A stretch of DNA of 52,367 nucleotides from a virus. The stretch is taken from the IMG/VR virus record IMGVR_UViG_3300022680_000054, positions 1-52,367 of that record; one strand, given 5' to 3'. The notes under the pieces were generated by a model. That model saw only the letters and a program-made list of their open reading frames with translations, searched no databases and had not been told where the DNA came from. Of the stretch, positions 2,747-24,496 are shown one piece after another. Position numbers and translations under genes: made by a program. Position 1 is the stretch's first letter, and each line of letters begins with the position of its first letter.

Positions 2747-3486
2747 CGTATCACCTCCAGCCCAAAGTAAGGGTGCTCTTTCAACAGCGGCGGCAGCTGC
2801 TCTTGTGCAAACGGCTTAGCCGTCCAGAAGTCATAACAGGTCGGGTGCAAGTCGGTCATCGGTCCATGCTGCGGCGTCCAGGCTTTGAACAGGCGCAGCC
2901 AATCTTCGCGCCATTCGGCCCGGTGCCCGTGAATCATGATTTTGTACTGGATAATATCTAACCGTTGGGCATAGCCCATATGGTACACCGGGGGCACGTC
3001 CAGATAGGCGTGGCCGTCTGCATGGTGCGGATTGATGACCCGGATCGGCTGCGCCTCGTCCTCGCAGTACCAACCAAACGACCGCCAGAAGTGCCGGAAA
3101 CGCAGGTGCCCGTTTCGCACGCCCATCGCCAGGCCCTGCTCAATAGCCGCTTCCACCGCGCCCGGCGCGTAAATCTCATCTGAATCAACCACAATAATCA
3201 GGTCAGCGTCCGGTTCCAGTTCATACACATAATCGCGCTGCGCGCCTTCGTGCGGCCAGCGGCCCCGATACCATTTGAATGGAATAGTCAGCACTTCACT
3301 GACGGCTTTTTGCAGCTGCTGTTCGCTCTCCGGGCAGACCACATCGGCCACGTGCCCGTGCGATCCTACGTTGGAATAACAGAACACAAAACAGTCAACA
3401 GCGTGCTGGACCGATTGGATGGCCTGCCGGATGTATTCCAGGCCATAGTGCAGTGCCATGAAGGCGACCACGCGCGGATTAGTCAT
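2743..3486 (-). CDS. Glycosyltransferase, GT-A/GT2-like
   Basis: A 247-residue protein beginning with the beta strand RVVAFMALHYGLEYIRQAI and containing the DXD-type metal/nucleotide-sugar motif LIIVVDSDEIYAPG (residues 95-108). This is the layout of GT2-like or Glyco_tranf_2_4 enzymes that lack a membrane domain. Histidines and aromatics in the C-terminal half (HRAEW, TCYDFW) probably shape the acceptor site. Its ATG overlaps the upstream gene by 8 bases and its stop is coupled to the next gene. It is one of at least five sugar transferases flanking the window ends. Confidence 0.75.
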   Translation of the reverse strand: MTNPRVVAFMALHYGLEYIRQAIQSVQHAVDCFVFCYSNVGSHGHVADVVCPESEQQLQKAVSEVLTIPFKWYRGRWPHEGAQRDYVYELEPDADLIIVVDSDEIYAPGAVEAAIEQGLAMGVRNGHLRFRHFWRSFGWYCEDEAQPIRVINPHHADGHAYLDVPPVYHMGYAQRLDIIQYKIMIHGHRAEWREDWLRLFKAWTPQHGPMTDLHPTCYDFWTAKPFAQEQLPPLLKEHPYFGLEVIR

Positions 3487-3889
3487 CTGTCGTCGCCTCT
3501 TTGGTCAATCCCTCATTCATGTCTTGAAGGCTTTGCAATAAGCGATTAAAAGAGTCTTTCATGTCAATCCATGAAATTATTGCATTCAGGACATCGACAG
3601 GTTCAAATTCAGCTTCTTGCTGCCCAAAATGACCATATACCATAGGCGACAACACCATACCATCAGCAACATCATTTAACGATATAAGCGCTTGCCATTC
3701 TTGGCGTGTCATTTCAACCAACACACCCCCCTCGTTGGTGTCACCAATTTTTTTCACCTTGTCCCCCTTATACCTTCTCCGGTATATCGTCCAATAACCC
3801 GGCCCCCACCACATCCCGCATGAATTCCTTATACTACGGTAGTAGGTCGATGTCGGGTGTACTTCGATTGATATTTTGTTTGCAGCCAT
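3479..3889 (-). CDS. Small protein, function unknown
   Basis: A 136-residue protein, soluble and acidic at the C-terminus, with an aromatic N-terminal section (MWWGPGYWTIYRRRY, residues 26-40) that looks beta-rich and a helical second half. A 43-base gap separates it from the glycosyltransferase gene upstream. The Shine-Dalgarno sequence is weak and distant. AT-rich relative to neighbours. No family recognised. Position alternates with enzyme genes, as for the other small genes of the island. Confidence 0.6.
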   Translation of the reverse strand: MAANKISIEVHPTSTYYRSIRNSCGMWWGPGYWTIYRRRYKGDKVKKIGDTNEGGVLVEMTRQEWQALISLNDVADGMVLSPMVYGHFGQQEAEFEPVDVLNAIISWIDMKDSFNRLLQSLQDMNEGLTKEATTDD

Positions 3890-23105: not shown

Positions 23106-23317
23106 AGGTTTATCCCAAAAAACATAATATCCCACTTGGGTAACCGGGGGGTTAGATTTCGTTGGTCGGGGGGTTCTACCCCCCAACAAACCTTCTGTTA
23201 CAATCCGCCGATTTCGGCTTACAATCGAACACAGCGCGTCAGGTTTTTTAAGTAGGGTAGGGGGGTGCTTTTTGAATATCCCACACAACCCAATTCTAAC
23301 CTTTTGCCCTAGATACC

Positions 23318-24213
23318 GATGCCCCCAAATCCGGGGGCACTTCGTTTTTAAGGACCGGCCCATGCGCCGCGTTGAGAGGTCGCGGGTCGAGGGGTGTCGC
23401 ACATGGGCCGGGGTCTGGACGGTGGAGCGCAAAGGTCATTACAAGAGACTTGCACGCTCCCCACTTTACGAGCGATAAACTCCACCGCCCAGAGCCATTA
23501 CCGGGCCGGTGTTTGGGGCACACCGGCCAGAAGCCCACTAGAGGAGAAATGCCGCAACCGTCAACCTCGCCGCTGACGGAAGTTGCTAGAGTTGGGGCCG
23601 CTTACGGCGGCCAGTCGCCGGTTTATCGTAACCCTGCTTAAGGTGCGTTGCAGAGCAGCCTATCGGCTTTGCCTACCGGAAACGCAATGGGGCATGTGGA
23701 CCTGCCCGGACTCGAACCGGGGTACAGCCTCAGCCCTTGCGGGCTTTAGCGACTGGCGACGCCTGTCAGGCCCAAGTGGGGCAGTCGGTCTACAGTGGCC
23801 TGACGATTAACTACCCCGTGGTGATACACAGCACTGCGCGCCCTCCTTGCGCCTGATCTTGTGGACCAGGTGCCCTACCTGTGCTGTCTGCTGCTGACCT
23901 TCCCCGCTGCGATCTAACCCATACGATAGGGTTGTCCTCGACGGCCTCACCGTTGAGGATGCAGCCGCGCTCCCCCGCTAAGCCTTACGGCATCACGGGG
24001 CAACACAGCGGTAGAAGGTTGGGGGCAGGGCGGCTGCGCTCGGTACTCGCGACCCTTCCGCACACCGGCCTTACGCGCCAGTGCCTTAGACCCCGCGAAC
24101 ATCGTCCGCCCTGCTGACCCAGTGCCCTGCGCCGGGAACGATCCGGTCCTTCCTCGCCGTGGCAAGGACGTGCAACCTTACACCACCAGGGCATGTAAAA
24201 ATAAGTATGCAAA
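23318..24213 (-). ncRNA. Large structured noncoding RNA candidate with tRNA T-arm-like motif
   Basis: About 900 bases without any plausible gene. Read leftward it folds into many strong stems: GTCAGGCC/GGCCTGAC (8 perfect pairs), CCTCAACGG/CCGTCGAGG (one mismatch), CACTGGC/GCCGGTG, CCCCG..CGGGG enclosing GCC-GTAA-GGC, AGCCC-GCAA-GGGCT, GGCCGGTGT/ACACCGGCC (near 23502-23528), and CCGGCCCATG/CATGGGCCGG (23355-23411). Both GTAA and GCAA are GNRA tetraloops only on the minus strand. A tRNA-like T-arm (CCCGG-TTCGAGT-CCGGG, 23705-23721) is followed by CAGGTCC (23698-23704), which can pair with GGACCT at 24213-24218. It fits none of tRNA, tmRNA or RNase P RNA. GOLLD/ROOL-like phage RNAs are the nearest idea. 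No clear promoter was found. Confidence 0.6.
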
Positions 24214-24217
24214 GGTC

Positions 24218-24496
24218 CTAACTAGGAGCCGCCATCATTTTTGGGGCTTCACTTACCTTGTCATCATCGTCGGTGATGATTACGAAATCGTCCAGGCTCT
24301 TACCGTAGTACCGAGCCAGTTTATCTACAATGGCCGGATCGGGGTCACCCTGATCTTCTGTCTCGTAACGCTGGATGGTGCGCCAGTTGATGCCGGTAGC
24401 ATCCGACACTTCGCGCATGGATATATTACGCCGTTCAACGATGGATTTTAACTGTCGTATCTTGCGGAATTTGGTCGTAAGCCAGCGGATGGTCAT
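24218..24496 (-). CDS. XRE-family repressor (Cro/CI-type helix-turn-helix)
   Basis: 92 residues from ATG 24496 (AAGGAG 9 bases upstream); earlier ATGs lie in the promoter. Residues 12-68 are an HTH_3 domain: LKSIVERRNISMREVSDATG, then NWRTIQRYETEDQGDPDP and IVDKLARYYGKSLDDFV. It lacks the C-terminal peptidase domain of lambda CI, so RecA-dependent self-cleavage is unlikely. It sits divergent to the early operon, between two strong promoters and TAGCATA repeats, so it most likely controls the early genes and itself. Without an integrase in view, a lysogenic life cycle is not proven. Confidence 0.85.
   Translation of the reverse strand: MTIRWLTTKFRKIRQLKSIVERRNISMREVSDATGINWRTIQRYETEDQGDPDPAIVDKLARYYGKSLDDFVIITDDDDKVSEAPKMMAAPS

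What the first reader, a model, noticed from the sequence alone, without database searches (positions are those of the whole stretch)
23318..24213. Large structured noncoding RNA candidate with a tRNA T-arm-like motif
In a genome that leaves almost no gap between genes, about 1.1 kb (23.1-24.2 kb) has no credible gene. Its minus strand is dense with strong stems, two of them closed by GNRA tetraloops (GTAA, GCAA) only in that orientation. It ends a sub-domain with a perfect T-arm-like hairpin and CAGGTCC, complementary to GGACCT at its 5' end about 515 bases away. It follows the repressor gene directly. It matches no tRNA, tmRNA or RNase P pattern I can check by eye. Large ornate phage RNAs such as GOLLD or ROOL are the nearest known class; a new class is possible.
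Basis: partly seen in the sequence, partly recalled or inferred. Interest (0 to 1): 0.85.

Follow-up and report, generated by a model that had tools for sequence, protein, structure and literature searches.

The report
Phage mini-tmRNA lacking the message part
The odd hairpin in this phage is a 77-base copy of only the tRNA-like head of tmRNA, the bacterial RNA that rescues stalled ribosomes; dozens of unrelated phages carry the same kind of truncated RNA, probably as a decoy that blocks the host's ribosome rescue.

Summary
On the minus strand at 23773-23697 lies a complete 77-nt tmRNA-type tRNA-like domain (TLD). It has acceptor GGGCCTG/CAGGTCC with G3·U70, A73, a canonical T-arm, a tmRNA-style D region and a short hairpin where tmRNA carries its mRNA-like domain. 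There is no anticodon, tag frame or pseudoknot. Rfam tmRNA aligns end to end with about 314 model positions removed (25 bits, below the gathering score of 47). A covariance model built from other phages, without this one, finds it at 63.6 bits, E 7e-15; tRNAs score 36 or less. Pattern scans of IMG/VR found 59 further contigs or records with such TLD-only RNAs (51 distinct sequences), plus about 26 Arthrobacter phages where it is unannotated. Seven relatives pass Rfam's tmRNA threshold. The only phage case I found published is mycobacteriophage DS6A, a form reported to inhibit tmRNA. Most likely this is an SmpB decoy that blocks trans-translation. The surrounding 1.1 kb is non-coding and GC-rich, and its 3' part is well structured. 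No homologue of it was found, and TLDs elsewhere mostly stand alone, so the large ornate RNA remains untested.

The parts
23697..23773 (-). TLD-only tmRNA-like RNA, 77 nt: GGGCCTGACAGGCGTCGCCAGTCGCTAAAGCCCGCAAGGGCTGAGGCTGTACCCCGGTTCGAGTCCGGGCAGGTCCA
   Evidence: Covariance model R1, built without this sequence: 63.6 bits, E 6.7e-15; Rfam RF00023 25 bits over model 1-374
23767..23773 (-). acceptor stem 5' strand GGGCCTG
   Evidence: 7/7 pairs with CAGGTCC, G3-U70 wobble included
23698..23704 (-). acceptor stem 3' strand CAGGTCC, followed by the A73 discriminator at 23697
   Evidence: sequence
23750..23766 (-). tmRNA-type D region (ACAGGCGTCGCC...), no true D stem
   Evidence: TGANAGG is shared by the TLD-only RNAs aligned; aligns with RF00023 GAucuGGaUUCGAC
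23732..23745 (-). hairpin AGCCC-GCAA-GGGCT, with outer pairs, in the place of tmRNA helix P2 plus mRNA-like domain
23705..23721 (-). T arm CCCGG-TTCGAGT-CCGGG
   Evidence: the T stem covaries in relatives
23774..24217 (-). non-coding 5' flank, GC-rich, function unknown
23318..23696 (-). non-coding 3' flank with long stable hairpins (23301-23500 z -6.4), function unknown
24218..24496 (-). HTH_3 (Cro/CI-type) repressor gene immediately upstream

Best explanation
The minus strand encodes a 77-nt TLD-only ('CDS-less') tmRNA: the tRNA-like head of tmRNA, with the mRNA-like domain and pseudoknots replaced by a short hairpin. Proposed mechanism (inferred): the transcript is trimmed like a tRNA, CCA is added, AlaRS may charge it through G3-U70/A73, and it binds SmpB and probably EF-Tu. 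Because it has no resume codon or tag, it cannot rescue ribosomes; it titrates SmpB or occupies stalled ribosomes and so inhibits host trans-translation during infection. Shown here: the anatomy, homology to tmRNA, and recurrence in many phages. Inferred: expression, processing, SmpB binding and inhibition.
For: Leave-out covariance model hit 63.6 bits, E 6.7e-15. TLD-only members score 40-70 bits on R1, against at most 36 for tRNAs and at most 28 for full or permuted phage tmRNAs. RF00023 aligns end to end with 314 model positions replaced by 21 nt. Seven relatives pass the RF00023 gathering score in the same way: L102; L153, L146, L171, L164, L128, L150. Phage-encoded full-length or permuted tmRNAs use the same GGGCCTG/CAGGTCC acceptor. 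51 distinct sequences on 60 contigs, window included: A73 in 50 of 51, U70 in 43 of 51. The acceptor 3' strand was not part of the search patterns, yet 17 of 21 and 26 of 27 hits pair 7/7. T stem and acceptor pair in 240 of 240 cells with two-sided changes at 6 of 12 pairs. The DS6A TLD-only form or a molecule like it is reported to inhibit tmRNA, perhaps by titrating SmpB, whether or not chargeable (PMC4131195, PMC11915505, citing Mao 2009). Eight of 51 have G3-C70, although G3-U70 is described as completely conserved in tmRNA (PMC3985003): charging is dispensable, as a decoy predicts.
Against: No expression data, and no SmpB-binding or inhibition test. The window's own RF00023 score (25) is below gathering (47). 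In this phage the D region departs from the usual TTCGAC (GTCGCC). The 1.1 kb non-coding context is unusual for the class.
Confidence: 0.65

Rival explanations
1. A 0.8-0.9 kb ornate RNA (24213-23318) that carries the TLD as an embedded domain, as some GOLLD RNAs carry tRNAs in their linker; the flanks form a scaffold that presents or cages it.
For: Non-coding, GC 60-65% on both sides; very stable 3' flank; GOLLD linkers sometimes hold tRNAs (PMC12286853).
Against: No homologue of the flanks; relatives mostly have the TLD alone in short gaps; the 5' flank folds no better than background; long-range helices at chance level; RNase P would be expected to cut at the TLD.
Confidence: 0.2
2. A degenerate or unusual tRNA gene (tRNA-Ala-like), or a tRNA pseudogene.
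For: G3-U70, A73 and T arm are shared with tRNA-Ala.
Against: No anticodon arm; ARAGORN finds nothing; tRNA-Ala scores about 30-36 bits on R1 against 63.6; the best Rfam match is tmRNA, not tRNA.
Confidence: 0.03
3. The remnant of an attachment site: host ssrA sequence captured by integration, or a decayed phage tmRNA.
For: Phages often integrate at tmRNA 3' ends.
Against: Both acceptor strands and the T arm are intact with perfect pairing, in many unrelated phages with varied acceptors and compensatory changes; no integrase was seen among the proteins scanned.
Confidence: 0.04
4. The TLD serves as a processing or stability signal (an RNase P/RNase Z cleavage mark) for the repressor transcript upstream, rather than acting in trans.
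For: It lies about 450 nt downstream of the repressor stop codon on the same strand; in other RNAs tRNA-like folds set transcript ends.
Against: In other phages the TLD lies next to unrelated genes or in tRNA clusters, and its tmRNA-specific D region would not be needed for a mere processing mark.
Confidence: 0.08

Closest known systems
TLD-only tmRNA of mycobacteriophage DS6A (Lau & Williams 2014, PMC4131195; 'Standard, no CDS' form in PMC11915505)
   Different: the DS6A sequence is not in the collections, so letters could not be compared; DS6A infects Mycobacterium, the window's host is unknown; the window TLD sits in 1.1 kb of non-coding DNA
tmRNA (Rfam RF00023) and permuted tmRNA (RF04321)
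   Same: acceptor with G3-U70 and A73, T arm, D-like region without a D stem; phage tmRNAs use the identical GGGCCTG/CAGGTCC acceptor
   Different: no mRNA-like domain, no tag frame, no pseudoknots; both acceptor strands lie close together and unpermuted
Two ~65-bp CDS-less tmRNA genes of Mallomonadaceae plastids (PMC11915505)
   Same: tRNA-like part only
   Different: plastid, not phage
GOLLD RNA (PMC12286853)
   Same: large phage non-coding RNA; some hold tRNAs in the linker
   Different: no Rfam match; no homologue for the window's flanks

Membership tests
TLD-only (CDS-less) tmRNA | matches a covariance model of other phage TLD-only RNAs | tested here: met
   63.6 bits, E 6.7e-15, window not in training set
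TLD-only (CDS-less) tmRNA | 7-bp acceptor with G3-U70 and A73 discriminator | tested here: met
   GGGCCTG/CAGGTCC A
TLD-only (CDS-less) tmRNA | 5-bp T stem with a TTCRANT-type loop | tested here: met
   CCCGG TTCGAGT CCGGG
TLD-only (CDS-less) tmRNA | inhibits trans-translation or binds SmpB | not testable with these tools
   only literature on DS6A-like molecules (PMC4131195, PMC11915505)
tmRNA (RF00023), full molecule | passes the Rfam gathering score | tested here: not met
   25 bits against 47; aligned end to end at E 5.4e-9 in a 101-base search
tmRNA (RF00023), full molecule | mRNA-like domain with tag frame and pseudoknots between D region and T arm | tested here: not met
   45 nt between acceptor 5' strand and T arm
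tRNA | called by ARAGORN or Rfam, with anticodon arm | tested here: not met
GOLLD / ROOL | match to the Rfam covariance model | tested here: not met
   no match at gathering nor at E up to 10
A single large structured RNA (new class) | compensatory changes in flank stems across homologues | tested here: inconclusive
   no homologue of the flanks found

The most novel reading that the evidence does not exclude
The non-coding 0.9 kb is one RNA: a new ornate phage RNA with a tmRNA head embedded in its middle, which docks on SmpB, AlaRS or stalled ribosomes through the TLD.
Probability: 0.18. Interest if true: 0.85.

Novelty: new member of a known kind. Interest (0 to 1): 0.62.

Why it matters
One phage example of a message-less tmRNA (DS6A) was known, and the 2025 tmRNA database lists nine 'standard, no CDS' sequences among 97,179. 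A few degenerate patterns found dozens in unrelated phages, missed by ARAGORN and unannotated in the cultured Arthrobacter phages that carry it. That suggests phages repeatedly evolve RNA antagonists of ribosome rescue, a counter-host strategy that can be tested now in laboratory phages. The loss of G3-U70 in 8 of 51 sequences argues for a decoy rather than a working tmRNA.

Tried and rejected
Protein-coding explanation: rejected. GOLLD/ROOL/RNase P and other Rfam families: none. tRNA: none. Partner GGACCT 515 nt away: rejected, since a full 7-bp partner lies close by. Long-range closing helix AAGGACCGG/CCGGTCCTT (24151/23358): at chance level. DNA homologues of the whole region: none in phage records; the IMG/VR protein anchors gave no usable relatives (the methylase gave only distant ones), so no covariation test of the flanks was possible. 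Genome-contig scan for the TLD pattern: 10 hits, only tRNAs or chance, no TLD-only RNA. The DS6A record is not in the collection. Local tblastn of 49 window proteins against the loci held at that point showed no relative sharing more than two proteins.

Full report
What is in the sequence. The window is a 52.4-kb IMG/VR virus record with terminase, a DnaB-type helicase, a replication-initiation O-like protein, a DNA methyltransferase and an HTH repressor. Between the repressor (ends 24218, minus) and the methyltransferase (starts about 23105, minus) lie about 1.1 kb in which no ORF looks coding: per-codon scores are -0.04 to -0.39, against +0.24 on average for this phage's genes and -0.35 for wrong frames. 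The nine ORFs tested there have no Pfam match. The stretch is GC-rich (60-65%), unlike the AT-rich operator region beside it (44-49%).

The T-arm and its true partner. The T-arm with CAGGTCC A (23721-23697 minus) is real. The 7-nt acceptor 3' strand pairs fully with GGGCCTG at 23773-23767, only 45 nt upstream of the T-arm. The 77-nt unit has a 7-bp acceptor with G3-U70, discriminator A73, a D-like region TGACAGGCGTCG, an AGCCC-GCAA-GGGCT hairpin and the T-arm. It has no anticodon arm.

It is a tmRNA tRNA-like domain. A scan of IMG/VR for the T-arm and acceptor brought up phage tmRNAs, standard and permuted, which use exactly GGGCCTG...CAGGTCC. Against Rfam, with a small search space, the window unit's best match is RF00023 tmRNA over model positions 1-374, with 314 model positions replaced by 21 nt: 25 bits, E 5.4e-9, below the gathering score of 47. 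Close analogues in other phages pass that gathering score in the same end-to-end way: L102 54.6, L153 67.1, L146 63.0, L171 59.1, L164 56.8, L128 51.9, L150 49.9 bits.

A widespread phage class. Scans with a fixed acceptor 5' strand, TGANAGG and a T-loop core found compact TLDs of 71-91 nt. The acceptor 3' strand was not in the patterns, yet 17 of 21 and 26 of 27 hits pair 7/7. In all, 60 contigs or records (window included) carry 51 distinct sequences; A73 in 50, U70 in 43, C70 in 8. BLAST of the Arthrobacter phage Nandita copy finds 26 Arthrobacter phage records, none with an annotation at the place. A model of 20 of these, window excluded, shows 240 of 240 paired cells and two-sided changes at 6 of 12 pairs. 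It finds the window copy at 63.6 bits, E 6.7e-15. Held-out relatives score 40-70; true tRNA-Ala genes reach 36 at most; full or permuted phage tmRNAs reach 28 at most. A related pattern in 257 Gb of cellular genomes returned only tRNAs and chance hits.

What is known. Lau and Williams (PMC4131195) list mycobacteriophage DS6A as 'TLD only' and say that a similar molecule, chargeable with alanine or not, strongly inhibits tmRNA, perhaps by titrating SmpB (citing Mao et al. 2009). [quoted passage not shown] coli. Literature searches here turned up no other phage example; most subscription journals are not covered. The window RNA is therefore a new member of a known but barely described kind; the breadth of that kind in phages appears to be new.

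How it probably works (inferred). A TLD is the part of tmRNA that SmpB and AlaRS recognise. Without the message part it cannot supply a resume codon. Titration of SmpB, or unproductive entry into stalled ribosomes, would shut down trans-translation. G3-U70 is described as completely conserved in tmRNA (PMC3985003); its loss in eight of the distinct phage TLDs, most of them close relatives from Arthrobacter phages, suggests alanine charging is not essential for the phage's purpose. That fits a decoy. Why a phage gains from this is open. Possible gains are escape from non-stop surveillance, or from defences that use SmpB-like parts; SmpB-like domains occur in CoCoNuT systems (PMC11090510).

The 'large ornate RNA'. 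The 3' flank is exceptionally stable (23301-23500 z -6.4; 23318-23767 among the top few of 72 stretches), the 5' flank is not. GNRA loops and hairpin counts are not remarkable, and long-range complementarity is at chance level. In other phages the TLD mostly lies in a tight gap between genes or inside a tRNA cluster (the gene calls there are mechanical). No homologue of the flanks could be found, so covariation could not be tested. I give about 0.2 to a single large RNA with an embedded TLD.

Noticed in passing
L102:1171-1238 and 3413-3487: A Pistol ribozyme (Rfam RF02679, 48 bits) lies about 2.2 kb upstream of a TLD-only tmRNA in a 179-kb phage contig.
   Followed up: no
L108, L109, L111-L115 (Arthrobacter phages and relatives): TLD-only RNAs with G3-C70 instead of the tmRNA-universal G3-U70; the related L106 (Nandita) keeps U70.
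   Followed up: partly
L161:6165-6236: A TLD-only RNA immediately next to a tRNA-Ala in a phage array of 37 tRNAs.
   Followed up: no
L103, L104, L105 (Streptomyces phages Success, Ididsumtinwong, Alderaan): tRNA-like genes with normal D and T arms but long odd middles, annotated variously as tRNA-Leu, tRNA-Arg, hypothetical protein or nothing; ARAGORN does not call them.
   Followed up: no
L175, L176 (Crassvirales cr50_1, cr10_1): Permuted phage tmRNA genes whose annotated ends run into a neighbouring tRNA.
   Followed up: partly
window 23320-23349: Good intrinsic-terminator-like hairpin plus T-run on the + strand (TGCCCCCAAATCCGGGGGCA CTTCGTTTTT), with no obvious + strand transcript before it.
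   Followed up: no
window 23429-23445 and 24209-24225: Imperfect 17-nt direct repeat GCAAAGGTC.T.AC.AG bracketing the non-coding region, spacing 780; may be chance.
   Followed up: no
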